Source: Brevibacterium sp. 239c
GTDB lineage: Bacteria > Actinomycetota > Actinomycetes > Actinomycetales > Brevibacteriaceae
Assembly: GCF_900169365.1 (NCBI RefSeq)
Contig: NZ_FXZH01000005.1
Span: 1 to 64,000 of the forward strand
DNA length: 64,000 nt
Direction of reading: 5' to 3'
The position numbers and the translations under genes were made by a program. This document shows positions 13,393 through 57,087 of the stretch, piece by piece. The notes under the pieces were generated by a model, which made no database searches, was not told where the DNA came from, and saw only the letters and a list, made by a program, of their open reading frames with translations. How positions within the stretch are numbered: the stretch's first letter is position 1; the number at the start of each line of letters is the position of its first letter.

Positions 13393-16300
13393 CTATCCCG
13401 CGACTAGCTGCATCAACTCGGAGTAGTCGGTGACGACATCGTAGGTAACGTCCTGGCCGTTCTTCTTGTTCAGTGACGCGAAAAACTTACGGGCACACTC
13501 AATCTTGGCGTTTTCAACTCCCTTAAGCTGAAGCGTTGATAGCGAACCCTTCGTCTCGGCGACGAAATAGACGTGCCTGACACTGTTTTCGATGAAGGCG
13601 ATTGCCCAGTCGGGATTGTAGTCACCGACGGGTGTCGGAATGAAGAACCCGCGTGGCAATTTAGCATAAACCGCGACCTCCTTGCTGGCATCCAGCTCGG
13701 TGACGAACGATTGCTCGATCTTGGAATCGGTGACGACGTAGTCGTAGATGTGCTTCGAGAGCTTGTTGCCAGCGTGGGTGAGGTCTTGCTTTGTTTGGTT
13801 CTCCGTGAAGATGGCGGATTCGAATCGGTCGTCCAACGCGTCATAGGTCAGGTGCTCGACAATCACAGTCGCCTTCTGTTCATTGATCAACCGCGCAGCC
13901 TCCGTGATGAACTGTTCAGGATTGCGACGAAACTTCGCGAACGTACCTGGCTGCACCCCGTGTAAAATCACCGCGGCGGTGCGGCGGGTGAGTTTTGTCT
14001 TCTCCGCGATCTCGCCGAGAAGGTCATACTTCACCTGCGAGCCCACGCTGACCGATTCTGTATAAGTCTGAGTACTCGACACGTCAAAGCCGGAACCGCT
14101 GTTGAGCTCATCGGACTCCAGCTGATCGCGTTGTCGACCGGTCTGAACAACGTACTGCATCGAATCGACATGCAGGTGCGTGTCGAGATTCGCAATAGCC
14201 TTTCGGATCAGCTCATCGGAGTCGAACTCAACCTGGTAGACCGCCTTATGATTGATCTTTCCCCACAAGGCTTGAAACTCCTTCTTGGCAAAGTTTGCCG
14301 CGTTGAGCGGAATTTTCTTGGGCTTGCGGCCGTCCACGAGGTCTGGCACCTCGATATAGAGCGCGTCAACGAGAGGCCAAATGAAGTCGATCACCGGACG
14401 GAGTACTTCCGAAGTGGGACCTGTGAGCTCTCCGGATTCCCTCGCCAGTTTGTATGCGTCGGAAATCGTGTCATCGTCGTTGAGATAATCGTTGCGGATT
14501 AGGTACTTGTAGAGTGCCTGTGCGACGGCTTCTTCGACAACGGACTCGCCATCAGGAGTCCGGATCGTTTTGCCGGTGAAATACTTGATGCTCGCCTTCC
14601 GAGGACGCGCTGCAAGGGACTCGGAGATCTCCTTCTGCAGACCAGTTACGAACTCAGTGTAGGACTCATCAGTGACAACCGTCAGCTCATTGATGTCGTG
14701 CACGGTGATCTCGTTGTCCATTCGTTCACCTTGTTGATCAACCGCCAATCGCAGACCACGGCCGATCTCCTGACGGCGGGACACCATGTTGTCGCTCTTC
14801 TTGAGCATCCCCATCACGAATACGTTCGGGTTGTCCCATCCTTCGCGTAGTGCCGAGTGCGAAAAGATGAAGCGGACAGGCTCTGTAAACGACAGTAGAC
14901 GTTCCTTGTCCTTAAGTATCAGGTCGTACGCACTTGTGTCCGTGGACTGCCCCTTGTCTTCGCCTCGGCCCGAGACCTTGCCGTCAATCTGTTGCCTAGT
15001 TTTTTTGTCGATCGAGAAGTAACCCTCGTGCACCTGCCAAACCTCGTCGCGACGGAGGTATGCCTGGTACTTCTCGGTGGCTTCGTCGATAGCCAACTCG
15101 CCGAGCACATCTGCCCGAATCGCGACGTATTCTTCCTCGAAGACGCGAGCGTAGTCGCCTAGCGTGTCCTCGCGGTCGTAATCCCGGTATTTGCCGACCT
15201 CGTCGATGAAGAACAGGGACAGCGTCTTGATGCCCTGACTGAACAGCTCACGTTCCTTGTCCAGATGCGCGCGGATGACTTCTCGAATCTGGATACGACG
15301 CTTCGTGTCCTCAGTCACGTCGCGGTCAGCTAGTTGACCCGCAACGACAACATCGCCGTTGCTTAGCTCGATCACGTCGCGGTTGGCATCAACTTCGGTA
15401 AGGAAGAGTCCTTTGTAGGCCTCGATCCCGTTCGACACATCGTGCAGATTCACGCCGGCGTCGAGGCGTTTCACTTGCCGCTTGATTCCTGACTGAGTTT
15501 GTACCTCGATCTCAACCCGAGCGCGTGGCTTCGCTCCGTTGGCGATCTCGATGTAGTCCAAGTAGAGGTAGGCCGTCGTGCCGGCCAAACCCTTGACAGT
15601 AATTCCGCGCACAGCGATCTTCTTCACAAGCTTCTCGTTGTAGGCGTCCAGGGCATCGAGACGGTGCACCTTAGTGTGCTCGGCCTTGTGCGTCGCCGAG
15701 TAGCGGAGCATCATCAGCCCGTTGAACCGCGACAGAGCAGCAAGCGACTTGGGGGCACCTATCTTCTGCGGCTCGTCGATAATCACAACCGGACGATTAG
15801 CCGCGATCACGTCGATCGGCTTCCGCGACTGGAAATCGTCAAGAACGTCGTAGATACGCCGGTTGTCCTTGCCCGTTGCATTGAAGGCTTGGATGTTGAT
15901 GATCATCACCTGCACCCCAGCGTCGGAGCTGAACCGCTCCAGTTCATGTAACTGGGAGGAATTGTACACGAACGATCGCGGCTTGGTACCGTACTGCTGC
16001 TGGAAGTGCTCAGCGGTCACGTCGAACGTCTTCTTCACTCCCTCGCGAATCGCGACAGACGGCACGACGACAATGTACTTCGACCAGCCGTACCGCTTGT
16101 GCAGCTCCATGATCGTCTTGATGTAGACATAGGTCTTGCCTGTACCGGTCTCCATCTCGACATCGAGATTCGGTGCGCCCGGAGCCGCCTTGCTATCAAT
16201 CAACGCGGCCGAGAGAGGGAGATTGCGGGAACGCTGGATTCTCTGGACGTTCTCCAGGAGCTGCGGACCAACGAGAGCGATTTCGGCGTTCCGTAATCCC

Positions 16301-16470
16301 GAATCGGGGTTGTCGTTCGTCTCGAACAGCGCAGGCGTGACAGTGAGTCTTGCTTGACCCGGGTCAATCCGGTAGGAAACCCCATCTTGCTTAGGCTGTC
16401 CGTCGAAAACTACGACCACCGAGTCTACGGCGTCGGTCTGGTATTGCTGAACCTTAAACTGAAGTTTCAT
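13393..16470 (-). CDS. Type III-like restriction subunit (Res), helicase-nuclease
   Basis: This 1025-residue protein starts MKLQFKVQQYQTDAV like type III Res proteins. Superfamily 2 motor motifs are Walker A METGTGKT (106-113), Walker B DEPQ (232-235, the type III form of DEAD) and a motif VI-like stretch after HSALREGWDNPN. Near the C-terminus, NPDWAI followed by YFVAETKG fits a PD-(D/E)XK nuclease core. It would translocate or switch on DNA and cut when bound with Mod at unmethylated sites. The ATG at 16470 is chosen over the GTG just before it. It starts five bases after the mod stop and is the last gene of the operon. Confidence 0.9.
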   Translation of the reverse strand: MKLQFKVQQYQTDAVDSVVVVFDGQPKQDGVSYRIDPGQARLTVTPALFETNDNPDSGLRNAEIALVGPQLLENVQRIQRSRNLPLSAALIDSKAAPGAPNLDVEMETGTGKTYVYIKTIMELHKRYGWSKYIVVVPSVAIREGVKKTFDVTAEHFQQQYGTKPRSFVYNSSQLHELERFSSDAGVQVMIINIQAFNATGKDNRRIYDVLDDFQSRKPIDVIAANRPVVIIDEPQKIGAPKSLAALSRFNGLMMLRYSATHKAEHTKVHRLDALDAYNEKLVKKIAVRGITVKGLAGTTAYLYLDYIEIANGAKPRARVEIEVQTQSGIKRQVKRLDAGVNLHDVSNGIEAYKGLFLTEVDANRDVIELSNGDVVVAGQLADRDVTEDTKRRIQIREVIRAHLDKERELFSQGIKTLSLFFIDEVGKYRDYDREDTLGDYARVFEEEYVAIRADVLGELAIDEATEKYQAYLRRDEVWQVHEGYFSIDKKTRQQIDGKVSGRGEDKGQSTDTSAYDLILKDKERLLSFTEPVRFIFSHSALREGWDNPNVFVMGMLKKSDNMVSRRQEIGRGLRLAVDQQGERMDNEITVHDINELTVVTDESYTEFVTGLQKEISESLAARPRKASIKYFTGKTIRTPDGESVVEEAVAQALYKYLIRNDYLNDDDTISDAYKLARESGELTGPTSEVLRPVIDFIWPLVDALYIEVPDLVDGRKPKKIPLNAANFAKKEFQALWGKINHKAVYQVEFDSDELIRKAIANLDTHLHVDSMQYVVQTGRQRDQLESDELNSGSGFDVSSTQTYTESVSVGSQVKYDLLGEIAEKTKLTRRTAAVILHGVQPGTFAKFRRNPEQFITEAARLINEQKATVIVEHLTYDALDDRFESAIFTENQTKQDLTHAGNKLSKHIYDYVVTDSKIEQSFVTELDASKEVAVYAKLPRGFFIPTPVGDYNPDWAIAFIENSVRHVYFVAETKGSLSTLQLKGVENAKIECARKFFASLNKKNGQDVTYDVVTDYSELMQLVAG

Positions 16471-16475
16471 CACGG

Positions 16476-18359
16476 TCAGATCGCCTTCACGTCAGTGGAC
16501 GGCGAAATCTCGCGGAAGACCTGCTCCGCATTAATTCGTTCAGCATCCGAAGCGAATCCGGAGTCAAGGAACACCGCCCGAAGCGGCTCACGCTTCGCGA
16601 GCGCGCGCACCAACTCTGGGCTCACATCGTCATCAAAACACGCGACGAGTGCTTCGTCCTCGACCACGAAGACCTCATGCCCTTCGACCTTCTCAACTGA
16701 CACGAACATCGTCACCTCGAGCCCCCAGTCGAGGAGAATCTGGAAGAGCAGGTCTTCGCCGGTGCGATCGCTCTTAATGCTGTCTTCCAAAACCGACAAC
16801 GTCTCTTGATCTGTTCCATCGGGCGTGCGGAGAACGTCGAGCTTGTTGGTGGTGTCAACTCTCAGGCTCCGAAATCCTACGTCGATATGCTCGGCATCCA
16901 AGGTGGGATCGTCGACGATTTCCCTGCCAGCGCGACGAAGGCGCTCAACGGAGAAGTCCGCGAGTGTTGCAAACTGCTCTGATGCTGGGGCAACCGGTTC
17001 GTTCAATTGCACCAGGATGAAGCGACGGTTCCCTCCATCCTCGGCATTTTGTTGCATTACAGCGTCGCCGGTGGTGGCAGAGCCCGCAAAGAAGTCGAGA
17101 ACAATATCCTCGGACTCAACTGAGGTTGCCAACTGAAGCATGCGCCGCACGAGCCGAGTAGGTTTGGGGGTCGAAAAGACCAGATCCGAGGAGTCGGAGT
17201 GCATGCGGGCGATCAATTCTTTTTTTGCTTCTTGGTTGTGGCCGACCTCAGAGTACGGCCAGAAGGTCTCAGCCACGCGACCTTGCTTCACTTCTGACAG
17301 GAATCGCTTAATTGCCGGACGATTCGAGCCATTTTTCCCGAACCAGACACGTCCGTCGGCGACCATCTCCTCATATCGGTCCTTCGTATAGAGCCAGGCT
17401 CGACCGGGCGGAGGACTGAAACTATGCCCGGCGGGGGTAACTAGTTTATAGAACTGGCTCGCTGTTGCGTGGCCTGAGGCCGCAGTTGCATCGGTCGACT
17501 TCCAGCGGCCCCGAGGATCATTGTCCGGATTCTTATAGGCTTTGTCCTGCTCCTCCGTCCTCGGAAGCAAGTTCGAAGCCCAGTCGGCACCATTTCTTGC
17601 ATATACGTGAACATAATCATGCACCGATGCGAATTGGGTCGCACTATTCATAGGCGAATAGACTTTCTCCCAGATGACGGTGGCCAAGAAGTTCGAAGCC
17701 CCAAAGATTTCGTCAAGCATCTGCTTCAGAGCCGCCGATTCGTTGTCGTCAATCGAGACAAAAACTACACCGTCGTCCGTGAGAAGGTTGCGCGCGAGCT
17801 TCAAACGCGGGTACATCATGGTGAGCCAATCCGTGTGGAAGCGTCCGTTTGACTCAATGTTCGCCACCAACCTATTACCGAGTTCGTCCGTCTGACCAGA
17901 TGCTGCGAGATAGCTGTCGTTATCCTGCGCATAGTCATCCGGGTACACGAACCGGTCGCCACCCGTGTTGTACGGCGGATCGATGTAGATCAGCTTGATC
18001 TTGCCGAGATAGGACTCCTGGATTAGCTTCAGAGCGTCGAGGTTGTCACCCTCGATGAAGAGGTTCTTCGTCGTGTCAAAGTTGACCGAAGCTTCTCTCA
18101 CGGGACGGAGCGTCTTGGCGATGGGTGCGTTCGCAGCGAAGGCTGCGGCTCGCTTGCCTGGCCAGTCGAGCCGGTAACGCTCCTGCGGCCCTTCGACGAC
18201 GTGGTCTGAGAGTTCTTGCCGCAGGAGGTCGAAGTCGATGGCCATCTTGCTGTTACCGTCGTCGTCGATGCTCTCAGTAACGACGGTTGGAAACAGCTCG
18301 GCGAGCTTGTCAATATTGGCATCGGTCAAATCGGGCGACGTCATTCGGAGCTTGTTCAC
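16476..18359 (-). CDS. Type III-like adenine DNA methyltransferase (Mod)
   Basis: This 627-residue beta-class amino-methyltransferase has DPPY (127-130, in IYIDPPYNTGGD) before the AdoMet motif FAGSAT (424-429), the order found in type III Mod proteins. The stretch between them (about 230-400) would carry the target-recognition domain. The motif fits N6-adenine methylation; the target sequence cannot be read from the protein. The GTG start follows GAGGT and lies three bases after the DUF4391 stop. It forms one transcription unit with the helicase, DUF4391 and res genes. Confidence 0.92.
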   Translation of the reverse strand: MNKLRMTSPDLTDANIDKLAELFPTVVTESIDDDGNSKMAIDFDLLRQELSDHVVEGPQERYRLDWPGKRAAAFAANAPIAKTLRPVREASVNFDTTKNLFIEGDNLDALKLIQESYLGKIKLIYIDPPYNTGGDRFVYPDDYAQDNDSYLAASGQTDELGNRLVANIESNGRFHTDWLTMMYPRLKLARNLLTDDGVVFVSIDDNESAALKQMLDEIFGASNFLATVIWEKVYSPMNSATQFASVHDYVHVYARNGADWASNLLPRTEEQDKAYKNPDNDPRGRWKSTDATAASGHATASQFYKLVTPAGHSFSPPPGRAWLYTKDRYEEMVADGRVWFGKNGSNRPAIKRFLSEVKQGRVAETFWPYSEVGHNQEAKKELIARMHSDSSDLVFSTPKPTRLVRRMLQLATSVESEDIVLDFFAGSATTGDAVMQQNAEDGGNRRFILVQLNEPVAPASEQFATLADFSVERLRRAGREIVDDPTLDAEHIDVGFRSLRVDTTNKLDVLRTPDGTDQETLSVLEDSIKSDRTGEDLLFQILLDWGLEVTMFVSVEKVEGHEVFVVEDEALVACFDDDVSPELVRALAKREPLRAVFLDSGFASDAERINAEQVFREISPSTDVKAI

Positions 18360-18362
18360 GGA

Positions 18363-19028
18363 TTACCTCTGCTGTTTCAGTTGTGTTTGCTTCGTCTTGA
18401 GTATTCGGCGCAGATCAATCTTGCGATTGAGCTGTGGCTCGGTGCGGAGTCTCCGTTCCAGAACGGCGATCTCACGCTCGAGCATTCGCACGGCGCTCAG
18501 TCTGTCGGCTACCTCCGACATCTCCTCGTCGGGCCGCAACGTCACTGGGATCAGTGGCTCCAAGAGTGCCCCGTAGAGGGCAGGTAGCGAGACGGCTACT
18601 GGGAGTGGGTGCCGCTCTGCACCTGCGGCTTGCCAGCCGGTTGTGTAGTAGGAGCTGAGCTTCGGAGTCCCTGCCCCGAGCCGCTTGTGTGCCGCGACCA
18701 ACCGCACCTGTGGCTCAGCATCGAGTGTGCGTGCGATCTCGAAGATGATCGGGTACTGGATAGCCTTGTCGATCGCAGTCAACACTAGGTCCGAAAGATC
18801 GTCCTTCTTGACGTCGAGCCGGAAGACCTGCACCTCGGGAACAGCGTCATTTCCGGACAGGTTGATGGTGGATTCCGCGAGCTTGTACGCCCACGTGATT
18901 CGCTGCACATCTGAGACGAAACGGTCGCGCACGGCCTTACTCACATTGGCTTTCTCGTAGAATTTCTCTTTGGGGACGCGTCGTTCGAACTTGGCCGCGA
19001 CAGGCCATTTGTATAGAAGGTCGGCCAT
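18363..19028 (-). CDS. DUF4391-domain protein of the restriction operon
   Basis: This 221-residue protein starts MADLLYKWPVAAKFERRVPK, typical of DUF4391 proteins as I remember them. The last 55 residues (from about EEMSEVADRL) are highly charged and helical and look like a coiled coil, suggesting it bridges partners. No catalytic motif is seen. The ATG at 19028 is preferred to an in-frame start at 19067 because homology begins there and it lies just after the helicase stop. The family tends to occur between a helicase gene and a type III-like mod gene, as here. Its biochemical role is unknown to me. Confidence 0.75.
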   Translation of the reverse strand: MADLLYKWPVAAKFERRVPKEKFYEKANVSKAVRDRFVSDVQRITWAYKLAESTINLSGNDAVPEVQVFRLDVKKDDLSDLVLTAIDKAIQYPIIFEIARTLDAEPQVRLVAAHKRLGAGTPKLSSYYTTGWQAAGAERHPLPVAVSLPALYGALLEPLIPVTLRPDEEMSEVADRLSAVRMLEREIAVLERRLRTEPQLNRKIDLRRILKTKQTQLKQQR

Positions 19029-19035
19029 ACGTTGC

Positions 19036-22000
19036 TCACTCAACCTGATTCGAATCGACGATCGCAATGAACGCTGTCAGCTCGAAGTTGTCCAGGCCAG
19101 CGATGGTCCGGGTGAGCGCGGTGGTACGCCCACCGGTGAAAAGGCTGTCGATGTCGCGCTCTTCTGCAACATTGATAATTGAATGGATCGCGTCGGTTAG
19201 AAGCTCCGAGTACGTATCCATCCTCGCGCCTTCAGCCGTGGCGGAGTTGAAGGTCCTCACGACCGCCGGCACGGGTTCCTCACGCGGCCGGCACCCGGCG
19301 CGCAGCAGGTCGAGGAGATGCTTGGCCTCGGTGTGGTCTGCGACCACCTCGCCCTGATCATCGAGATAGACGAGGTAGTGCGGATGGAGGCGGTTACCGC
19401 GGTTCATCTGCTCGTCGGCGTTGACGTTGCGGAGGGCGAAGATCGCCCCGGGCACGAGTCCCGTGTCCGGGTCCGCGGGGATAACGCCGTGTAGCCCCTT
19501 GGGCACGGCCGCGAGGTCACCATATTCCTTGATGTAGCCGAGGAGGTCCATCCGGAAATCATTGAGTCCGAGGTCGGTGATAGAGACACCGGTACGGACA
19601 TCTTCCAGCTCGATGACTTCATCTTGTAGTTTACGGAGCTGTTCCTTACGGAAGGCGGCGTCGGAGTCTTCAAGTGTGAGAACGTTGTCATCGGCCGTCC
19701 CGGCGAGGTCGGCAATTACCATCCTGGACTCAACACGCACTTTGAGGTTGATGTACTCATCCAACGAAATGTCGGGCCAGAAGTTGACGAGTTGGATGCA
19801 ACTGTTCTGGGAGCCGATCCTGTCAATACGCCCGAACCGCTGGATGATCCGTACAGGGTTCCAGTGGATATCGTAATTGATCACGTAGTCGCAGTCCTGC
19901 AAGTTCTGGCCTTCACTGATGACGTCAGTCCCTATCAGAACGTCCAGTTCCTGGGCCTCATTCGGCATCGTCAGGTGACGCTGCTTCGACTGTGGCGAGA
20001 ACAACGCCATGACCTGCTGGAAGTCGTAGCCGGTGCCAAGTGTGGTCTTCGCGCCGTGGCTGCCGCCCGTGATGACAGCTGCTTCCAATCCCGCTAGAGA
20101 GAGGCTTGAAGCGAGTTCACGGTAGAGGTAGTTGGCGGTATCTGCGAAAGCAGAGAACACCAACACCTTGCGGTTTCCAGGATTGATCGGATGCTGCGCT
20201 TTGTGCTGGATCAACTCTTTGAGCTTGCGGAGCTTCAGGTCGTGTTCGGGCGTAATCTTGTGCATTTCATCGAGAAGTGCCCGCAGCGTCTCACGGTCGC
20301 TCCACAGGTCCCGCTGCCATGACTCGATGTCAAGGTCGTGGAGGTCGATCTTGATCTTCTCGCCGACTGCGATCGCTTCGATGTTCGCGTCGTCCTCTTC
20401 GTCAATATCGAAGTCGAGCCCGGCGAGGTCCGGCGCGATGTCTGCCAAGAATCCGGTGTGGCTGCTAATACGGCCAAGGGAGTGGGCCACGGATTCTTCA
20501 ATCTTCGTCAGCGTCAGCCGAAAAGCCTCGACCGAACTTTCCAGCCGTTTGAGAAGGTTCACAGTCATAAGCTTCTTCAGCCCTTGCTCACGACCAGCCT
20601 GTCCCAAGTTGGCGCGGGCGGTGCCGACAGTGACGTTGTACCGCTCTTCGTACTTTGCACGTCGGCTCGCGAACACATACTCCAGCGGTGCATATACCGC
20701 GAGAGTGAGGGATTGGAGCCGCTCAAAGATGTCGTTGAAGCTGGGTGCTTTCGGGAGGTCGGTGAGTGACTGGTGGATCGACAGTGGATCGAGCCGCTCC
20801 GGGAACGCTCCGATCTCGGTCGTGTCATAGAACGCCTGTATGTGCTTACGGGATCGTGCGATGGTGACCGAGTCCAACAGCTCGAAGAAATCGAAGTCGA
20901 GCATCTGTAGGATGCGATCGGTTGTGCGCTGCGCCGAGTCGAGTTTGGACCACTCGTTAAACACCCGTTGAGCATCGGAGAAAACCTTCTCAACCGTCGT
21001 GGAGAGGTTCAGGTGCTGTGCGAGGTTTTCCGACTCGCCCTCGTACGCGAGCTGGAGTTGGTTCTTCAAATCGTTGAAGCGGTTGTTCACCGGGGTAGCC
21101 GAGAGCATCAATACCTTCGTGTTAACGCCCTCGCGGATGACTTGCCGCATCAGCCGCTGGTAGCGCGATTCTTTCTCCTGCGCATAGTCGGCGTTACGGA
21201 AATTGTGGGACTCATCAATCACAACGAGGTCGTAATTGCCCCAGTTGATTCGATCCAGGCGCAATCCAAGGGATTCGCCTTTAGTTCGGGACAAATCCGT
21301 GTGGGCAAGGACGTCGTAGCTGAACCGATCTGCGGCGAAGATGTTTGTCGTGAGATTGGCGTTGTAGTTCGTCCAGTTCTCGGCGAGCTTTTTCGGGCAC
21401 AGTACGAGCACGGACTTATTGCGCAGTTCGTAGTATTTGATCACAGCCAAGGCCGTGAATGTCTTACCGAGGCCGACTGAGTCGGCAAGGATGCAACCGT
21501 TGTAGGTCTCCAGCTTGTTGATGATCCCGGTCGCAGCGTCGTGCTGGAAGTTGTACAGGCTCTGCCACACTTTGGTGTCTTGGTATCCAGTGCGGTCGTT
21601 CGGCAGCACGTCCTCGCTAATATCGTCGAGGAACTCTGAGAACAGATTATAAAGTATAAGGAAGTAGATACGAGCGGGTGGGTTCTCCGCGTACACGCTG
21701 GATATGTGATCATGGACGCTCTGAGTGACATCCTCGAGTTGTGCAGAGTTCGCCCAAATCTGGTCGAAAAGTTGCATGTACTGGGCCGTCATGGGCGCAT
21801 CGTCCACTCGGTGCACTATGTTCGAGACCGCGTTTCCACGCTCATAACCGAGGTCGGCTGTAGTAAACCCCTGTAGTGGCAAGTACGCTACCCTGTCATC
21901 AACTACGGCGAACTGCTGCATCGGACTACCGGTCGCATTCGACCGGAATGTGACCTTGCCACGCACCCACTCCGCACACTCACGTGCTATCGCGCCTTGG

Positions 22001-22308
22001 GTCAACTTGTTTCGCAATCGGATCTCAAACTCCGACCCCGCTAGAGTCGACTCCGCACCCCAGTACGGTATGAAGAACTCGCGACGCTCCTTTCGGAGCT
22101 TGTCCGTCGCCTTCTCAGTCATGAACGATGGTGAAGTGAAAATGAACTCGAGTTCAGAGACCTGCCCCAGCTCTTTCCGCAGCGCCTCGAACGCGAAGAT
22201 CGAAAATGTCGAGGCGGCGATACGTACCTTTGAGCCAGTTGTGATCTCCGCTTTGAGATCATCACCGAGGAGGTCGGTGACGTTGTTGATGATCCGCAAG
22301 CTAGTCAC
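19036..22308 (-). CDS. PLD-like / SNF2-type helicase of the restriction operon
   Basis: This large 1090-residue ATPase has an N-terminal part (about 20-160) resembling a phospholipase-D-like domain (GSKVRIAASTFSIFAFEAL). The expected HKD signature is degenerate: around 130-150 it reads QQFAVVDDRVAYLPLQGFTT, without the histidine. The SF2 motor follows: Walker A DSVGLGKT (276-283), DESH (365-368), SATPVNNRFNDL, and a C-terminal helicase half with GTDVISEGQNLQ and QRFGRIDRIGS. A GTG start overlaps the HTH gene stop (GTGA). It probably acts on DNA with the Mod/Res pair encoded downstream. Confidence 0.88.
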   Translation of the reverse strand: MTSLRIINNVTDLLGDDLKAEITTGSKVRIAASTFSIFAFEALRKELGQVSELEFIFTSPSFMTEKATDKLRKERREFFIPYWGAESTLAGSEFEIRLRNKLTQGAIARECAEWVRGKVTFRSNATGSPMQQFAVVDDRVAYLPLQGFTTADLGYERGNAVSNIVHRVDDAPMTAQYMQLFDQIWANSAQLEDVTQSVHDHISSVYAENPPARIYFLILYNLFSEFLDDISEDVLPNDRTGYQDTKVWQSLYNFQHDAATGIINKLETYNGCILADSVGLGKTFTALAVIKYYELRNKSVLVLCPKKLAENWTNYNANLTTNIFAADRFSYDVLAHTDLSRTKGESLGLRLDRINWGNYDLVVIDESHNFRNADYAQEKESRYQRLMRQVIREGVNTKVLMLSATPVNNRFNDLKNQLQLAYEGESENLAQHLNLSTTVEKVFSDAQRVFNEWSKLDSAQRTTDRILQMLDFDFFELLDSVTIARSRKHIQAFYDTTEIGAFPERLDPLSIHQSLTDLPKAPSFNDIFERLQSLTLAVYAPLEYVFASRRAKYEERYNVTVGTARANLGQAGREQGLKKLMTVNLLKRLESSVEAFRLTLTKIEESVAHSLGRISSHTGFLADIAPDLAGLDFDIDEEDDANIEAIAVGEKIKIDLHDLDIESWQRDLWSDRETLRALLDEMHKITPEHDLKLRKLKELIQHKAQHPINPGNRKVLVFSAFADTANYLYRELASSLSLAGLEAAVITGGSHGAKTTLGTGYDFQQVMALFSPQSKQRHLTMPNEAQELDVLIGTDVISEGQNLQDCDYVINYDIHWNPVRIIQRFGRIDRIGSQNSCIQLVNFWPDISLDEYINLKVRVESRMVIADLAGTADDNVLTLEDSDAAFRKEQLRKLQDEVIELEDVRTGVSITDLGLNDFRMDLLGYIKEYGDLAAVPKGLHGVIPADPDTGLVPGAIFALRNVNADEQMNRGNRLHPHYLVYLDDQGEVVADHTEAKHLLDLLRAGCRPREEPVPAVVRTFNSATAEGARMDTYSELLTDAIHSIINVAEERDIDSLFTGGRTTALTRTIAGLDNFELTAFIAIVDSNQVE

Positions 22309-22520
22309 TCACTTTCTTCGTCGTCCCCGCTCTGAGTCACAACTGCCTCGCTACGGGAATAGCCTTCGATCTCGCTGGGCTGGAACATCCACACTCTGCC
22401 CATCTTATGAGTTGGCATAAATCTGTGAGCGACCCTGATGCCACAAGACTCTCTGGCAATGCCGGGACCAGCATCGATGTCGTCAGCATACAACCGGGAC
22501 GCGGACACAGGACACCCCAC
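22305..22520 (-). CDS. Small excisionase/MerR-type HTH protein, first gene of the operon
   Basis: The frame encodes up to 71 residues. The segment IARESCGIRV...HKMGRVWMFQPSEIEGYSRS matches the winged-helix pattern of excisionase-type DNA-binding domains (helix, a lysine-glycine-arginine turn, then an aromatic followed by SEIE). The start is uncertain: GTG at 22520 directly follows a TGA, and a second GTG at 22508 is possible. No strong ribosome site is seen. It overlaps the helicase start by four bases, so it could serve as an autogenous controller (C-protein-like) of the restriction operon. Low-complexity acidic residues end the protein. Confidence 0.6.
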   Translation of the reverse strand: MGCPVSASRLYADDIDAGPGIARESCGIRVAHRFMPTHKMGRVWMFQPSEIEGYSRSEAVVTQSGDDEESE

Positions 22521-25416: not shown

Positions 25417-26187
25417 TCACGCCGGACTATCGGCTTCGGGTTGTTGTCGAGTTGTCTTGCGCATGTTCGGGCCATCGAGTTGGACGATCTCGCTGACAGA
25501 TACCAGTCGGCTGAGGATCGACTCGGCGATGACGGCGTCGTGGAGTGATTTGTACCAGTCTTCCGGGTCGAACTGGGACGTGACGATCGTGGCTCCGCGG
25601 CCTTCTCTGCTCGCAAGGATGTTGAGGATCTTGGCGGTCGTGTCCATCGTGATCGGAGTGGTGAGGAAGTCGTCGAGGACGAGGACATCGCAGTGACGCA
25701 GCCTGTCGAGGAACTTCAATCCTCCGGGGTCAGACGGCTGGTAGACCGCCAACCGATTCCCCAGATCGTCCAGCCGCCAGTACGCGACGGTGTAGTCCTT
25801 TCGGCAGGCAGCGTTGACCAGGGCCTGGGCCAGATAGGACTTGCCGACGCTGGTTTTGCCGAGGATGATCACGTTCGTCGCATTGTCGATCCAGGCACAT
25901 GAAGCGAGCCGATCGACGACGTCGCGAGTCAGCGTCCGATCAGGCAGGTAGCGGACGTCTTCGACACAGGCTGCGGGGTTCGGTGTGTGAGAGGCCTTGA
26001 GGAGTTTGTGGACGCGGCGTTCTGCCCGGGCGGCAAGCTCGATGTCGAGAGCATGGTGGATTTTGGCAGAGAACGTCCAGTCGTCGTAGGCGGAATCGTT
26101 GGCGATATCGATCACGGCCTGCCCGAACGCGGTCATCCGCAACTGGGTGAAAGTCGCCATGTCATCAGTGGTCAGGTGATCGGTCAT
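25417..26187 (-). CDS. istB: IstB-like transposition helper ATPase
   Basis: This 256-residue AAA+ ATPase assists the IstA transposase by forming target complexes on DNA. Walker A is GKTSVGKS (in VIILGKTSVGKSYLAQAL) and Walker B is DVLVLDDF. An STSQFDPEDW-like sensor region (VTSQFDPEDWYKSL) and LVSVSEIVQLDG follow, as in other IstB proteins. The frame looks intact and starts inside the istA stop (ATGA, 26184-26187). With istA broken it may be unused or act in trans. Confidence 0.93.
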   Translation of the reverse strand: MTDHLTTDDMATFTQLRMTAFGQAVIDIANDSAYDDWTFSAKIHHALDIELAARAERRVHKLLKASHTPNPAACVEDVRYLPDRTLTRDVVDRLASCAWIDNATNVIILGKTSVGKSYLAQALVNAACRKDYTVAYWRLDDLGNRLAVYQPSDPGGLKFLDRLRHCDVLVLDDFLTTPITMDTTAKILNILASREGRGATIVTSQFDPEDWYKSLHDAVIAESILSRLVSVSEIVQLDGPNMRKTTRQQPEADSPA

Positions 26188-27806
26188 TGGTCGGATCCTT
26201 TCTCATCGTTCGTTAGCGCCGTGAGGCGGAATTGATCAACACCAGTCAGGTGAGCCCGGCTGGTATCCCTGGACACAGCCGCGGCTGGGGCCGGTGATGG
26301 TGGCGGTGTGACTGCAGGTCGTTGCTTGGCTTGGGCGCGAATAGCAGTCAGCTGGTGCTTGACCGCGGTGTAGCTGATCGGCCGGTGCTCATCGGCACAC
26401 AGTGTTTGGCAGGCTTGCTCCAGCAGGGGCCGGTTATCGCCCTTGCCCAGAGACAGGATGTTCATGCAGGCTCTGAATCCTTGGGCTTCGATCTTCTTGG
26501 TATCCAGCAGCCGGGTGAGCGCTTCAACCGTGTTCGGCCCTGCTTTCGCGGCTTGGCGGAGGAAGTAGCCGCGAGTCCACAGCCCAGTGGTTTGGCCTTG
26601 AGAGGCTGGCGCATGATCGGCATCGGTGACATATGAATGCTTCTTCCTACCCACTCGGTGGCTAGCGACGATGTCGCCACCGGCGAGGACGTCGAGCCTG
26701 GTGCCAACGATGCGCACATCCACGGTGGTCCCGACGAAGGTGGCGGGCACCGAGTACTTGATGGTCTCGATCTGGATATGCCAGTCCCGGGAGACCTTCG
26801 CCTTCTTCCAGCTCACGTCCTGCCAGGGCTGGTCGGGCAGGCTGATGAGGTCACCAGCTTCATCGTCGGAAAACCAGTCACGCCGGGACCTGGATTGGCT
26901 GCGGAAGGGAGTGCGATCGTTGATCCACTCCACCCGGCTGGCGACTGCGTCGTTGAGGTCATCGATATCAGCAAAGAGCTGGTCGGCGAGGTAGTGGATG
27001 ACCCAGTTCGTGACGATCTTGACGCCGGATTCGACGTTCGCTTTCTCTTTCGGCTTATAGGCACGGGTCGGAACGGCTGCCGTGTTGTAGTGCTCGAGGA
27101 ACCCGGCATACGAGGCGTTGACGTCGCGGGTCTTGTCATACTTGCTGATCTGATTCGACGCTGTTGAGGCGTTGTCGGGGATGATGACCTGAGCCACGCC
27201 GCCGAAGTATTCGAAGGCACGCCTGTGAGCATCGCACCAGGCAGAGAGTTTCTCATCCAGGCACCCGTAGGCAAAGATCATTCCCGAATACGGCAGTGTG
27301 GCGACGAAGATCGAAACCTTCGTGAGCGCGCGGGTGATCGGGTCGGTGATCCACATCGGGGTGCCGGCCCAATCGACTTGCATCGTGTGACCCGGGGTGT
27401 GCGTGATCGGGCTGGTGAGGTCGTGGGTGCGGACGTGTTCGGCGATGATCTGGCAGAACCGTTCATACCTGTAGTGCCGCGTCGACGGAGTGGGTGCCGG
27501 AGTGTTGAGGTAGCGGGCTCACAACACTTTCAACGGTGGCTTCTTTCGTCCGATCCGGGCGGTGATGACGGCATCGACATCGATCGGGACGAAGTCGCCA
27601 TCGACGCTTTTGCGGCCGTCGGTGAAGAACCGGTCGAGGTCGGCGACGGTGAGGGCATCGACTTGGTCCGTTGTCGTCAGCGACTGGTCCTTGACGACGG
27701 TGCGGGCCTTCGCGATCGCGCGGTGAGAACAGCTAGCCATCGCTTCGATCTGTCGGTAGGAGTAACCCTGAACGATCAGGGAGAGAATGTGCCGGTAGTC
27801 GGCCAT
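26184..27806 (-). pseudogene. istA: IstA transposase with an internal stop codon
   Basis: The frame starts MADYRHILSLIVQGYSYRQI (ATG 27806, AAAGGA upstream), the helix-turn-helix end of IS21 transposases. It runs 95 codons to an in-frame TGA at 27519-27521 in the sequence PPLKVL*ARYLNTPAPTP, where relatives would have a sense codon such as tryptophan. The same frame then continues to 26184 with the DDE catalytic domain: MQVDWAGT, VIIPDNAST and KEKANVESG. A shortened protein from the ATG at 27383 would lack the DNA-binding domain. Confidence 0.92.
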
Positions 27807-36619: not shown

Positions 36620-38719
36620 TCAGTCAGTGGCGGCATTTTGAAACTCCGCACGAACGTCTCTCAATCGACGACCGTCATTGACGGCCCAGAAATACCAGCC
36701 GTTCGTGGCTTTCTGACGCAGTGCATAACCAGCGGCAGACGGACTGTAGTACTTTTTCCCATCGAATTCGATGGCACCATCCGCCGTCACCTTCGCCTTG
36801 GAGCTTGTGAAGTCACGGTGTGTTGCCGAGAGTTCATCACCACCAGCCAGCAGCCCGGCCTCGATCAGATGTTTGAGCTCCACCCAGTCTCCCGCCTTCG
36901 TCTGCGGATCGATTACTCGCCCCTCGTGGCCTTCCGGCACTGGCCACACCTTGAGCAGCTCATCGATCAACTCAGCGGTTCTCTGATCGATCAGCTTTTC
37001 GTCCCATTCAAGGTTTTCAGTCATGCCTACGACCCGGCCCGTCAGCGTGATCGTATTATGCTGCAGGAGTGCGGCACGCTTCGAACGCCAAGGACCGTTC
37101 GAAATCTTGGAATTCAATGAATTGGTCAACAGTGTTAAGTTCCCCAATCGATGAACGCGCTCCTGACGCTCCTCCTCTGCTTCCAGGGTGCTTGCCGGCC
37201 AGGTGTCCTTCCAAGCACGCGGAAGAATATGCTCGATCGGATAGTTATTGCGCTCAATCTGCGGCTGGCCCGTTTCGGCACGGTATCGGTCTTCGATAGC
37301 TTCAAGAAACATGCGCAGGCGTCCGCGGGGAAAGCGCCTATACGCTGATTCGATGGTCAGCGAATTGCGGACCTCTTCATCTCCTGGCCAGTAGGCCGTG
37401 GTTACGTTGAGCCGTGACAAATATCCAATGACGCGATCAGCTAAGTCTTCGGCGTCCGCTTCAGCGTTTGCGGCTATCACATCAGCGACGATGCGGCCTA
37501 GATTACTGCCTGACAGACGAAGAAGCTGCCTGCGGTAGATCCAGCTCTCGGCCGCTCTGATGATTCGGTCGATGTCATGTTGCGACACATTGCGTCCGGG
37601 CGCATACAACCAGATCACAAGTGGCTTGAGAACTTCAATGCCGCTGGCCGCCATTCGATAGAAGGCCATTTGAGGCGAGTTGAGGCTACCGCCGGGTCGG
37701 GCTGACGATTCTGAGAGTTCTTGATATTGAGCAGCCTGAACTTGCAGTTCCGGCAGAATGTCGCTCATCTGTCGCCTCGAATCATGTTCGATCCATGATT
37801 TGAATCGCGAGAAGGTAGCTTGCGGGCTGATTTCTTCACCAGTGATGGCGACTAGCCACTGGTTGAAGAACAGGGAACTGCGACTGACGAAATTGCGACC
37901 GACGCTGACCTCTTTCATCCAGAACTTTGACTCGAATGGCCACTCTTCGCGATATGCGCGATCAGTGTCCGCGCCCTCAAGCTCCAGGCGTTGGAACACG
38001 AAATTTCGAATCAAGTCGGCAGCCGTCAGCGGAGTTCCACGCGCATTCAGGGTCTCGAAGATCTCCTGAGAGTTCTCTGCAGCATCCAGTTCGATCGAAA
38101 CGAATTGCAACCCATCTAAGAGAACATTCGTCAGTTCTTCCGCCTTATCTGCGAAGTCCGGAGATTCCGGAGAGCCGAGCCACTGTTCCATCACTGCTGA
38201 GAAATAGCGGTGAGCAGCGACTATCTGCGAGTCTCGCTGCCTGAGCTGGTCGTAGTTGACGGGCGGCTCGGCGAGCATCACTTCGGTGAACGCCGCGCCG
38301 TCCCGATTCAGGTGCCGTAGTTTGAGGCGGCTTTCGCCATCATCGACGTATTTCTCTGAGTTGTGTGTCAGATCATCCAGCTGGCTCGCCAGTTTCACAT
38401 AATCTGCTTCTTCCAGAAGGGCACACGCTGCGTCAGCGACAATCTGCAGAGTAGTCAGTCTCTGTTGGCCATCGATGACGTTCCAGGCGATCAGTCGTCT
38501 ACTCTGTACTTCCTGCGCCTGGAGCACGACAGCGCCGAAGAAGTGAGTTGCTTCGCGGTACGGCTCCGCAATCCGCAGCTCAGCAACACGCCGGATATCA
38601 CTCCACAGCGGATCCCACTGTTCAGCTTCTTTCCACACGTAGGGACGCTGAAATAGGGGAATGACGAAATGTTGAGGCAGGTTGAACAACTGCATCGGTG
38701 TTCGTTTGAAGGTCTCCAT
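36620..38719 (-). CDS. GmrSD-like type IV restriction protein (DUF262-DUF1524) with C-terminal RAMA domain
   Basis: The protein has 699 residues. The N-terminal DUF262 part shows IPLFQRPYVW (20-29) and the nucleotide-binding-type VIDGQQRLTTLQ (81-92). The DUF1524 part has the HNH-type core YPIEHILPRAW (493-503) and HRLGNLTLL...NSKISNGPW (523-544). These two domains are fused in GmrSD-type enzymes that cut modified phage DNA. A final 80 residues (about 612-690, LIEAGLLAGGDEL, DGAIEFDGKKYYSPSAAGYA, NGWYFW) resemble a RAMA domain, found with DNA-modification enzymes. The ATG at 38719 is chosen because homology starts there. It stands alone. Confidence 0.88.
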   Translation of the reverse strand: METFKRTPMQLFNLPQHFVIPLFQRPYVWKEAEQWDPLWSDIRRVAELRIAEPYREATHFFGAVVLQAQEVQSRRLIAWNVIDGQQRLTTLQIVADAACALLEEADYVKLASQLDDLTHNSEKYVDDGESRLKLRHLNRDGAAFTEVMLAEPPVNYDQLRQRDSQIVAAHRYFSAVMEQWLGSPESPDFADKAEELTNVLLDGLQFVSIELDAAENSQEIFETLNARGTPLTAADLIRNFVFQRLELEGADTDRAYREEWPFESKFWMKEVSVGRNFVSRSSLFFNQWLVAITGEEISPQATFSRFKSWIEHDSRRQMSDILPELQVQAAQYQELSESSARPGGSLNSPQMAFYRMAASGIEVLKPLVIWLYAPGRNVSQHDIDRIIRAAESWIYRRQLLRLSGSNLGRIVADVIAANAEADAEDLADRVIGYLSRLNVTTAYWPGDEEVRNSLTIESAYRRFPRGRLRMFLEAIEDRYRAETGQPQIERNNYPIEHILPRAWKDTWPASTLEAEEERQERVHRLGNLTLLTNSLNSKISNGPWRSKRAALLQHNTITLTGRVVGMTENLEWDEKLIDQRTAELIDELLKVWPVPEGHEGRVIDPQTKAGDWVELKHLIEAGLLAGGDELSATHRDFTSSKAKVTADGAIEFDGKKYYSPSAAGYALRQKATNGWYFWAVNDGRRLRDVRAEFQNAATD

Positions 38720-38922
38720 CTTGCCCAAGATACCGTAATGTACGGTCCGAGATTCTCCGGGGTCTGAGCATTTTCCGTGTTTTTGCTTAGTAATCCGCGT
38801 CTGCGTCCTACAAAGCATTTGACCTGCACAAATCTCTAACAGTTCGGCTAGCCTGAGTGGGTATTGAACAAGCTCAGCGAAGAGCACTCCGCTCATACGC
38901 GAAACCCCTGAGGAGACCGCCA

Positions 38923-40428
38923 ATGACGCTCGGATCCACCGGCCAGATCGCTGCCCCCACCCGGAGCACCGGATCGGGTCCCTACCCCAGACTCATCCTC
39001 CGCGATGCCATGATCGTCGACGGAACCGGTGCTGCCCCATACGGGCCAGCGGACATCCTGATCGAAGACGACAGGATCACCGGAATCTGGGAACCGAACG
39101 GTGCGAGCAGCCTCACCGAACGTCCCTCGGCCGACGGCGCCGAAGTCATGGACCTCAACGGCTCCTACGTCTTGCCGGGACTTATCGACTCCCATGCCCA
39201 CATCGGCAAACCCGAGCAGGCCCCGAACGCCGACTATGTCTATAAACTCTGGCTCGGCCACGGCGTGACCACCGTCCGCGAACTCGGCGCGTTCAATGGC
39301 CTCGACTGGACCGTTTCCGAGGCCCGACGAGCCGAAGCCAACGAAATCGCGGCCCCGCGACTGCACATCTATCCCGCACTGCGTGCCGGAACCCTCGATG
39401 GGCCTACCCCAGTCACGGCTGACGAGGCAACCGCGTGGGTCAATGAGGTCGCCGACCGGGGAGCGAGCGGAGTGAAGTTCTTCGGCACCTCCCCCACTGT
39501 GTTCGGTGCCGCTGTCGAGGCAGCACAAGCACGTGGTCTGCGGACCGCCTGCCACCACGACCAGCGCCGAGCCGCGCAGGTCAACGCCCTCACCTCGGCG
39601 AGGTGGGGACTGGACAGCATCGAACACTGGTACGGCATCCCCGAGGCTATGTTCCGCGACCGCACCCTCCAGCACGTGCCCACCGACTACAACCACAACA
39701 GCGAACCCCAGCGCTTCAGCCAAGGCGCCCACCTGTGGTTGCAGACCGCCGAGCGCGGCACCAGCGCCTGGCAGGAGACACTCGAGGAGCTCCTCGAACT
39801 CGGAACCGCATTGAGCCCGACGTTCAACATCTACATCGGGTCCCGCGACGCCGCCCGAGTGCGCACCTCCGAATGGCACTCTGACTTCACCTCCCCCACT
39901 CTGTGGGAGTTCTTCGAGCCCTCGGCCGACAAACACGGCTCCTACATGGGCGACTGGACAAGCGAGGACGAGATCGCCTGGCGCCACGCCTACGTCAAAT
40001 GGATGTCCTTCGTCAATGACTACAAGAACCTTGGCGGCTTAGTCACGGCCGGGTCGGACTCCGGATTCATCTACAAGGTCTTCGGATTCGGCCTCATCGA
40101 AGAACTTGAACTCCTCCTCGAAGCGGGGTTCCACCCCCTCGAAGTCGTCCGCGCCGCCACGCTGAGCAGCGCCGCGCTTCTCGGCATCGCCGACGAGCTC
40201 GGCTCCGTCGAACCCGGCAAGATCGCCGACCTGCTCATCGTCAAGGACAACCCCCTGAGCAACTTCAAGGTCCTCTACGGCCACGGTCACCTCCGCGCCG
40301 AAGAATCCGGCATCAACCGCGTCGGCGGAGTCGACTTCACTCTGCGCTCCGGCATCGTCTACGACGCCCGGGAACTCCGCGAGGACGTGAAGTCAATGGT
40401 CGCCCAGGAGAGAGCGGAGCAGCACTGA
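38923..40428 (+). CDS. Amidohydrolase family protein (imidazolonepropionase-like)
   Basis: The protein has 501 residues. The metal site is complete: GLIDSHAHI near the N-terminus, GVKFFG (the possible bridging lysine), TACHHD, IEHWYG and TAGSDSGF. The C-terminus closes the composite beta-domain (GKIADLLIVKDNP). Such enzymes hydrolyse cyclic amides or peptidic substrates such as acyl-aminoacyl compounds. The ATG at 38923 follows AGGAGA at six bases. It converges on the peptidase and oligopeptide-transport operon, suggesting a role in processing an imported peptide or amide. Confidence 0.9.
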   Translation: MTLGSTGQIAAPTRSTGSGPYPRLILRDAMIVDGTGAAPYGPADILIEDDRITGIWEPNGASSLTERPSADGAEVMDLNGSYVLPGLIDSHAHIGKPEQAPNADYVYKLWLGHGVTTVRELGAFNGLDWTVSEARRAEANEIAAPRLHIYPALRAGTLDGPTPVTADEATAWVNEVADRGASGVKFFGTSPTVFGAAVEAAQARGLRTACHHDQRRAAQVNALTSARWGLDSIEHWYGIPEAMFRDRTLQHVPTDYNHNSEPQRFSQGAHLWLQTAERGTSAWQETLEELLELGTALSPTFNIYIGSRDAARVRTSEWHSDFTSPTLWEFFEPSADKHGSYMGDWTSEDEIAWRHAYVKWMSFVNDYKNLGGLVTAGSDSGFIYKVFGFGLIEELELLLEAGFHPLEVVRAATLSSAALLGIADELGSVEPGKIADLLIVKDNPLSNFKVLYGHGHLRAEESGINRVGGVDFTLRSGIVYDARELREDVKSMVAQERAEQH

Positions 40429-56011: not shown

Positions 56012-57087
56012 CTGCAGCCACGATCCGAATTCGAAATGTGTACGTAATGATGGCGTATGCGTTCCGGTCACTTCAGAGTCGTGACAGTATCTCGGTGAAG
56101 AGCGAAGCGTTCAACCATCTCCACGATCTCCTGGCAGAGCTGTTGTACCGCGGGTTGAGTTCCCAGATCAAGCGTGGACTGCACAGTGACTATCTACCGA
56201 GAGTCGATACCCTCGCAACGGTTCGCGGACGGATAGATGTCTCTCAGACCGCCAGCACTCGGTCAATGTTGCGTGGTCGGCTGGTCTGCCAATTCGACGA
56301 GTACCTCCCCGACACTCCTCACAATCGTGTCCTCAAATCGGTCGTCGTCTTGCTCATTCGGCGAGGAGAGGTGGCAGCCCTCCGTCGGAAGGCTCTCAAG
56401 AACCTTTTGCCCCACCTTGAGTCGGTAAGAGAAATCAAAGCGTCAACAATTCGTTGGGGCGATCTGAGTATTCACCGCGCCAACGCAAACTACCGGATGT
56501 TGCTCGGCATCTGTGAACTCATTGTCAAAGGACTTCTCCCGACGCAGGAATCCGGTAGTTCAAAATTGAGGTCCTGGATGACCGACGAAGCGATGAACAG
56601 GCTCTACGAAAGATTCATCCTTCAGTACTTCAAAATCCACCATCCGGAACTATCCCCTCATGCTCGCCAGATCCCCTGGGCGCTTAACAGCCTCGAATCC
56701 GATGGAGCAGGCCAGTTGCCCATCATGCAGACTGACATCACGCTGAACAATGGTCACGCAGAGCTCATCATCGATGCGAAATATTACGGTCGGTCGCTCC
56801 AGTCTGGTCGAGGAGACAAGCAGACCGTCCATTCGCACAATCTCTACCAGATTGCCACGTACACATGGAACGCGGACGTGCATCGCGACGGTTCGGTGAG
56901 CGGCGTGCTCTTGTATGCCCGGACTATCCACGAAGAACAGCCCGATGTCGATGTCGTTATCCAGGGCAATCGCATCGGCGTCCAAACCCTCGATCTCAAC
57001 CTCCCGTGGGAGGCTCTACGCTCCAGACTGGAGGGTCTGCTCGGTTGGCTGGAGCCACGACAAGTACACGTCGAGTTTCTTGTCTGA
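56008..57087 (+). CDS. mcrC: McrC-like nuclease partner
   Basis: This 359-residue partner of McrB starts in the mcrB stop (ATGA). The nuclease core is D243 in MQTDITL and D256-A-K258 in LIIDAKYYG, a PD-(D/E)XK site. The N-terminal part (RIRNVYVMMAYAF) matches McrC proteins of the shorter type. The McrB ring would drive McrC-mediated cleavage. Confidence 0.92.
   Translation: MTAATIRIRNVYVMMAYAFRSLQSRDSISVKSEAFNHLHDLLAELLYRGLSSQIKRGLHSDYLPRVDTLATVRGRIDVSQTASTRSMLRGRLVCQFDEYLPDTPHNRVLKSVVVLLIRRGEVAALRRKALKNLLPHLESVREIKASTIRWGDLSIHRANANYRMLLGICELIVKGLLPTQESGSSKLRSWMTDEAMNRLYERFILQYFKIHHPELSPHARQIPWALNSLESDGAGQLPIMQTDITLNNGHAELIIDAKYYGRSLQSGRGDKQTVHSHNLYQIATYTWNADVHRDGSVSGVLLYARTIHEEQPDVDVVIQGNRIGVQTLDLNLPWEALRSRLEGLLGWLEPRQVHVEFLV

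What the first reader, a model, noticed from the sequence alone, without database searches (positions are those of the whole stretch)
13393..22520. Five-gene coupled helicase + DUF4391 + type III-like Mod/Res operon as a possible extended restriction or defence system
Seen: HTH, PLD-like/SNF2 helicase, DUF4391, Mod and Res genes run in one direction with overlaps or gaps of a few bases. Known: classical type III systems need only Mod and Res. I recall helicase-DUF4391-Mod-Res clusters in genome annotation but no characterised name. Inference: the extra helicase and bridging protein broaden the activity, for example by sensing phage DNA or replication forks. A dedicated HTH may delay expression until Mod has protected the chromosome.
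Basis: partly seen in the sequence, partly recalled or inferred. Interest (0 to 1): 0.72.

Follow-up and report, generated by a model that had tools for sequence, protein, structure and literature searches.

The report
Type III restriction with helicase partners
A DNA-cutting bacterial immune system of a textbook type is found here, and in many other bacteria, firmly tied to two extra genes, a DNA motor and a small partner protein, whose job has not been worked out.

Summary
The gene run is real: SNF2-type helicase (HEL), DUF4391, type III Mod and type III Res, one direction, gaps of a few bases. It is far more than a local coincidence. In the 80 closest named DUF4391 loci, HEL lies upstream in 79 and Mod downstream in 79 (each exception is a contig end); order is HEL-DUF4391-Mod-Res in 73 of 73 loci where all four are visible. 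The cassette occurs in Actinomycetota, Pseudomonadota, Bacillota and further phyla, partly on plasmids. About half of the sampled genomes with a type III Res also carry DUF4391 (14 of 26 and 12 of 23 in two phyla), so this looks like a major subtype of type III restriction-modification; I found no published account of it. HEL and DUF4391 co-diverge tightly (r 0.86), the Mod recognition domain is swapped freely, and the PLD fold of HEL has lost its HKD residues in every copy aligned. I read HEL-DUF4391 as an ATP-driven accessory module of a type III enzyme whose only recognisable nuclease is Res. The HTH gene is decayed in this window and was not found in 32 of 72 evaluable loci. Function is untested.

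The parts
22305..22520 (-). Decayed excisionase-type HTH ORF (start more likely GTG 22508); overlaps the HEL start by 4 bases
   Evidence: Translation; 38 bits to the HTH family HMM; 19 bits to the MAD1 model, cut-off 80; no Pfam hit
19036..22308 (-). HEL: SNF2-type ATPase with an N-terminal PLD-like domain that has lost HKD; 1,090 aa
   Evidence: ATPase motifs kept in 82 of 82 and HKD lost in 82 of 82; dN/dS 0.06-0.08 against two congeners
18363..19028 (-). DUF4391 protein, 221 aa from ATG 19028: alpha/beta domain plus coiled-coil hairpin (predicted)
   Evidence: PF14335 162.9 bits, cut-off 29.9; model with mean pLDDT 91
16476..18359 (-). Mod: type III adenine methyltransferase with a variable central recognition domain (about residues 221-420)
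   Evidence: 725 bits to MTase_III; DPPY kept in 79 of 79; EcoP15I Mod match 1.8e-51
13393..16473 (-). Res: type III helicase-nuclease (start may be ATG 16470)
   Evidence: 1051 bits to REase_III; Walker A, DEPQ, PD and ExK positions kept in 72 of 72; EcoP15I Res match 1.5e-62

Best explanation
This is an accessory-carrying type III restriction-modification system. Shown by sequence: Mod and Res keep their catalytic motifs; HEL keeps the motifs of an SNF2 ATPase and has a dead PLD fold; HEL and DUF4391 form a co-diverging pair that is almost always beside Mod-Res, whereas Mod-Res also occurs without them. Inferred: HEL and DUF4391 form a complex, with DUF4391 as a coiled-coil adaptor, which engages the Mod-Res complex on DNA. 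The SNF2 motor would move along double-stranded DNA, strip bound proteins and drive or hold the Mod-Res complex, which in classical enzymes slides passively, so that Res cuts unmodified invader DNA even where sites are sparse, badly oriented or covered by protein. Mod sets the specificity and marks self DNA; HEL, DUF4391 and Res stay constant while the Mod recognition domain is swapped.
For: HEL upstream in 79 and Mod downstream in 79 of 80 loci, exceptions being contig ends; order kept in 73 of 73. Wider sample: HEL within 1.5 kb in 51 of 57 loci, the other six at contig ends. HEL motifs kept in 82 of 82 and HKD lost in 82 of 82, and no HKD in 14 further distant HELs, so Res is the only recognisable nuclease. 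Distance correlations over 57 loci: HEL-DUF4391 0.86, Res-Mod core 0.72, HEL-Res 0.56, HEL-Mod recognition domain 0.16. Five E. coli copies: HEL 99.3-100%, Res 99.6-99.9%, DUF4391 91.7-100% identical, Mod recognition block only 40-50% identical. Classical type III enzymes slide by diffusion after a short ATP-driven step (PMC11142916, abstract).
Against: No assay, no structure of a complex. Mod-Res persists where HEL is lost (G436, G1103) and exists without HEL-DUF4391 (for example L248), so HEL is not indispensable to it. One locus, L161, has DUF4391 without Mod or Res in 9.6 kb downstream, and L046 has no Res within 10 kb. HEL-Mod correlation is weak (0.32), so a fixed HEL-Mod interface is not supported. 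The HEL model was poor (pLDDT 57), so no structural test of the motor was possible.
Confidence: 0.55

Rival explanations
1. Checkpoint: HEL-DUF4391 is a sensor that gates Res. Res is released only when missing methylation coincides with an abnormal DNA state (stalled fork, free end, damage), which would protect the host, above all after a swap of the Mod recognition domain.
For: Recognition domains are swapped in nearly identical E. coli cassettes while HEL, DUF4391 and Res stay constant. Hachiman shows that a helicase can restrain a small partner until it meets damage (PMC12278908, start of the abstract in the listing).
Against: Type III systems without HEL-DUF4391 exist, and G436 and G1103 keep open Mod and Res after loss of HEL, so a gate is not always needed. 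No sensing domain was identified.
Confidence: 0.2
2. Modification helper: HEL-DUF4391 clears chromosomal proteins so that Mod can methylate all host sites; restriction itself does not need it.
For: HEL-DUF4391 was not seen without Mod where flanks were long enough, apart from the DUF4391 of L161. L046 and the G402 cassette keep HEL, DUF4391 and Mod without a Res nearby.
Against: HEL diverges more in step with Res (0.56) than with the Mod core (0.33). Many type III systems manage without it.
Confidence: 0.12
3. Separate defence module: HEL-DUF4391 is a defence pair of its own that uses Mod only as a self mark, and Res is an optional second effector.
For: HEL-DUF4391 and Mod-Res exchange partners at times: of 1,596 locus pairs, 29 have HEL above 78% with Res below 58% identity, and 39 have HEL below 68% with Res above 75%.
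Against: No recognisable nuclease in HEL and no nuclease triad kept across DUF4391. Res follows in 74 of 80 loci, five of the six exceptions being contig ends.
Confidence: 0.1
4. Chance neighbours in a defence island with no working link.
For: The window also carries GmrSD-RAMA and McrBC genes.
Against: Fixed order across phyla.
Confidence: 0.03

Closest known systems
Classical type III restriction-modification (EcoP15I)
   Same: Mod and Res match EcoP15I subunits at 1.8e-51 and 1.5e-62 and keep the catalytic motifs.
   Different: Two more genes, HEL and DUF4391, precede Mod in a fixed order. Only Mod and Res make up the EcoP15I complex (Mod2Res1; PMC4490356, start of the abstract in the listing).
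PADLOC family C3a139 'HKD+Snf2'
   Same: HEL and two distant relatives score 387-405 bits.
   Different: It is a family model only; the name appears in no paper of the library, and the HKD of its name is absent here.
DISARM (DrmD SNF2 helicase)
   Same: An SNF2 helicase beside a methyltransferase; HEL scores 158 bits to NCBIfam DrmD.
   Different: Far below the cut-off of 610; the methyltransferase and nuclease are type III.
Hachiman (HamAB)
   Same: A helicase paired with a small protein of formerly unknown function (PMC12278908, listing).
   Different: DUF4391 hits no PADLOC family, and no nuclease triad is kept across the family.
MADS (MAD1 regulator)
   Same: The intact HTH of related cassettes belongs to the same small excisionase-type family: 71-83 bits against the MAD1 model.
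   Different: Only one of four intact relatives tested passes the cut-off of 80; the window copy scores 19 bits; the other genes are type III.

Membership tests
Type III restriction-modification | Mod: adenine methyltransferase with DPPY and motif I, related to type III Mod | tested here: met
   MTase_III 725 bits; DPPY in 79 of 79, first G of motif I region (G426) in 79 of 79; EcoP15I Mod 1.8e-51
Type III restriction-modification | Res: SF2 ATPase plus PD-(D/E)xK endonuclease | tested here: met
   REase_III 1051 bits; RE_endonuc 7.6e-33; motifs in 72 of 72
Type III restriction-modification | Cleavage needs two inverted unmodified sites; only one strand methylated; Mod2Res1 complex | not testable with these tools
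   Needs biochemistry and methylation data
DISARM | SNF2 helicase of the DrmD equivalog family | tested here: not met
   158 bits and 94 bits against cut-offs of 610 and 950
Phospholipase D-like anti-phage helicase (NF042964) | Score over the family cut-off | tested here: not met
   122 bits against 1100
HKD (PLD-type) nuclease | HxK(x4)D catalytic motif | tested here: not met
   Q in place of H in 82 of 82 and F, L or V in place of K; no HKD in 14 more distant HELs
MADS | MAD1 HTH over the cut-off | tested here: not met
   19.4 bits against 80 for the window's HTH
DUF4391 (PF14335) | Score over the gathering cut-off | tested here: met
   162.9 bits against 29.9
Hachiman-like helicase-nuclease pair | Small partner is a nuclease | tested here: inconclusive
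   No PADLOC or PDB sequence match, no Foldseek match at 0.001, no triad kept across the family; a divergent nuclease is not excluded

The most novel reading that the evidence does not exclude
About half of type III restriction systems are really four-protein machines in which an SNF2 motor and DUF4391 act as a DNA-state checkpoint: Res cuts only when missing methylation coincides with an abnormal DNA state, and this is what lets such systems swap Mod recognition domains without self-destruction.
Probability: 0.2. Interest if true: 0.82.

Novelty: new variant of a known kind. Interest (0 to 1): 0.6.

Why it matters
Type III enzymes are studied as two-protein machines. If about half of type III loci carry an SNF2 motor and a partner protein in fixed order, the textbook model describes only part of the class. 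It would bear on how type III enzymes cope with few, misoriented or protein-covered sites, and on how bacteria survive a change of methylation specificity. E. coli cassettes that are nearly identical except for the Mod recognition domain make this directly testable.

Tried and rejected
DUF4391 as a known fold: the AlphaFold2 model is good (mean pLDDT 91), but Foldseek gave no PDB match at E 0.001 or better (best 0.03, COP9 signalosome chain), and the VIA-align rows cover mainly the coiled-coil hairpin (residues 163-221). I leave the alpha/beta domain unassigned; its order of helices and strands recalls a roadblock-type pattern from memory only.

HEL structure: mean pLDDT 57, pTM 0.41; not used for a fold search.

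DUF4391 as nuclease: D87, E97 and K115 looked like an active site in close relatives; D87 and E97 are not kept at 75% in 65 more distant sequences, K115 is in 50 of 65. Dropped as a lead, not excluded.

PLD domain as nuclease: rejected.

HTH as cassette-wide regulator: rejected as a general rule (found in 40 of 72 evaluable loci). For seven loci without it I picked one ORF upstream of HEL each; none had a Pfam hit at 0.01, and they need not be real genes.

Phage cargo: two 13-kb unverified 'Bacteriophage sp.' scaffolds carry a whole cassette. The cassette fills most of each, so I do not take them as proof of phage carriage.

Literature: DUF4391 gave one paper and C3a139 none. Searches for SNF2 or HKD helicases with type III systems and for DMS_other listed no paper whose text that I saw describes this cassette; I opened ten papers, mostly by passages. 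The library holds only open-licence PMC papers, so this is not proof of absence.

Full report
What is there. The window lies in a 4.38-Mb genome of 68 contigs. The genus is most likely Brevibacterium: a genome of the same genus, G332, carries an HTH sequence identical to that of Brevibacterium senegalense L031. HEL has SNF2 and Helicase_C domains and scores 387 bits against PADLOC C3a139 'HKD+Snf2'; DUF4391 scores 163 bits; Mod and Res score 725 and 1051 bits against PADLOC type III models. Mod and Res match solved EcoP15I subunits.

Is it more than a neighbourhood? A profile of seven DUF4391 proteins found 303 confirmed stretches in the collection of 84,980 species genomes, of which the tool keeps the best 80. 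In these 80, HEL lies upstream in 79, the exception having 2 bases of upstream DNA; Mod lies downstream within 4.5 kb in 79, the exception having 51 bases of downstream DNA; Res follows in 74. Of the six without Res, five have 2.1 kb or less of downstream DNA; one (L046) has 10 kb and no Res. Where all four are visible the order is the same in 73 of 73. These are the closest relatives, so I sampled more widely. PF14335 occurs in 7 of 296 genomes of the window's phylum, 23 of 398 of the phylum of an alphaproteobacterial MAG and 23 of 249 of the phylum of a Clostridiaceae MAG. Among 57 loci (a few re-find earlier loci, and some broken genes appear as two pieces), HEL is within 1.5 kb in 51, the other six being at contig ends; Mod is within 1.5 kb in 47. 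Of the remaining ten, three are at contig ends; six (five genes) have Mod further down; one, L161, has neither Mod nor Res in 9.6 kb.

How common among type III systems? In the Pseudomonadota draw, 37 of 249 genomes matched RE_endonuc; I set aside 11 weak matches (E worse than 1e-6) and kept 26. DUF4391 was found in 14 of these 26 genomes; in 11 of the 14 it lies on the same contig within about 8 kb of Res, in three on another contig. In the window's phylum, 23 of 396 genomes, its own included, had a Res at 1e-30 or better; 12 of the 23 have DUF4391, in one of them (G402) at another place than that Res.

Asymmetry. Mod-Res occurs without HEL-DUF4391 (for example L248, with a closely related Res). 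G1103 keeps open Mod and Res beside a remnant in which about 57 residues of HEL abut the end of DUF4391; G436 keeps DUF4391, Mod and Res but not HEL. HEL-DUF4391 without Mod was not seen where the flanks were long enough; the DUF4391 of L161 sits at a contig end, so its HEL cannot be judged. G402 has HEL-DUF4391-Mod with no Res in the 19 kb fetched, and a Res elsewhere. So HEL-DUF4391 looks dependent on the type III core rather than the reverse.

Anatomy. HEL motifs I, II and III are unchanged in 82 of 82 sequences, and motif VI apart from one I/V position; Res Walker A, DEPQ, SATH and the P, D, E and K of the nuclease are unchanged in 72 of 72, Mod DPPY in 79 of 79. The HKD motif of HEL is lost: Q for H in 82 of 82 and F, L or V for K, and no HKD in 14 more HELs from more distant cassettes. 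Res is therefore the only recognisable nuclease. DUF4391 is predicted as an alpha/beta domain with a C-terminal coiled-coil hairpin. Over 152 sequences K20 never changes, E65 is kept in 147, and an ExQxN motif in the hairpin in most (146, 145 and 135 for its three residues); D87 and E97, invariant in close relatives, are not kept.

Evolution. Over 57 non-redundant loci (of 65 with all four genes), identity-distance correlations are HEL-DUF4391 0.86, Res-Mod core 0.72, HEL-Res 0.56, HEL-Mod core 0.33 and HEL-Mod recognition domain 0.16. Two modules, each coupled inside, exchange partners at times (29 and 39 discordant pairs of 1,596). HEL is under strong purifying selection (dN/dS 0.06 and 0.08 against two congeners; DUF4391 0.18 against one). 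Within the genus 3 of 57 genomes, its own included, have HEL. In E. coli 10 of 5,426 genomes carry the cassette, 10 of 11 places on plasmids. In five E. coli copies HEL (99.3-100%), DUF4391 (91.7-100%) and Res (99.6-99.9%) are nearly constant, while the variable Mod block is 40-50% identical between flanks of 90-98%. HEL and DUF4391 thus need not read the target sequence; Mod does. Twelve of the 73 four-gene loci carry two Mod genes. Extra genes may be inserted: a Schlafen/AlbA_2 protein (four of four such ORFs tested), DUF2130, AAA_13.

The HTH. Intact relatives are excisionase-type HTH_17 proteins close to the MAD1 model. They lie upstream of HEL in 40 of 72 evaluable loci. The window's copy is open but decayed, and none was detected in the congener locus L096. 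A Citrobacter plasmid has a WYL gene in this place; four E. coli plasmid copies have a truncated one. Regulation is labile and not part of the core.

A parallel. Three of six DUF4391-free actinobacterial type III loci that I fetched have a DrmD-class SNF2 gene upstream of Mod (581-703 bits to a PADLOC DrmD model). Coupling of an SNF2 motor to type III Mod-Res may have arisen more than once.

Mechanism and limits. Classical type III enzymes use a short ATP-driven step and then slide by diffusion (PMC11142916, abstract). I think HEL-DUF4391 adds an active double-strand motor that clears the way for the complex or drives it. The checkpoint reading is the main rival. Neither is shown; what is shown is linkage, kept and lost motifs, co-divergence and swapping of the recognition domain.

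Known or new? PADLOC lists the helicase as a family, and annotation names DUF4391, Mod and Res. In the searches made I saw no paper that describes or tests the cassette. Passages that I read in PMC12839542, PMC10853773, PMC12458937, PMC8565338 and PMC12707154 concern other systems or classical type III enzymes. PMC7365801 (text read except its last part) and PMC5644110 (passages) report an active type III Mod (AGCAGY) in propionibacteria; I could not tell whether that locus has HEL-DUF4391.

Noticed in passing
window 36620-38923 (-) and 53780-57087 (+): A GmrSD restriction protein with a RAMA domain, and an AAA_5 gene followed by a McrBC-component gene (McrBC-like pair): further restriction genes in the same window.
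   Followed up: partly
window 25417-27383 (-): IstB-like and Mu-transposase-like genes of an IS21-type element upstream of the cassette; argC, argJ and an aminotransferase gene on its other side.
   Followed up: no
L135 7032-10079, L136 7146-10043, L137 9062-11965: DrmD-class SNF2 helicase genes upstream of type III Mod in loci without DUF4391 (581-703 bits): a possible second helicase-coupled type III arrangement.
   Followed up: partly
L254-L257 and L005 (E. coli): Nearly identical cassettes whose Mod recognition blocks are only 40-50% identical: specificity swapping in place.
   Followed up: yes
PMC7784981 (passage): DUF4391 is listed among domains tied to Actinomyces strains nonpermissive for the epibiont TM7x (counts 1/10, 3/3, 1/10; column heads not seen). 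Possibly only kinship.
   Followed up: no
NCBIfam NF047737 (MAD1) on L002, L004, L077, L097: The MAD1 model scores 71-83 bits (cut-off 80) on HTH genes of type III cassettes; one of four intact ones passes, so such cassettes may be partly annotated as MADS.
   Followed up: partly
L259, L260 (MT836075.1, MT836122.1): Two unverified 'Bacteriophage sp.' scaffolds of 13 kb consist mostly of a HEL-DUF4391-Mod-Res cassette; they may be bacterial contigs.
   Followed up: partly
L241 (G1103), L130 and L262 (G436): Natural losses of HEL, or of most of HEL and half of DUF4391, beside open Mod and Res: ready comparisons for an experiment.
   Followed up: partly
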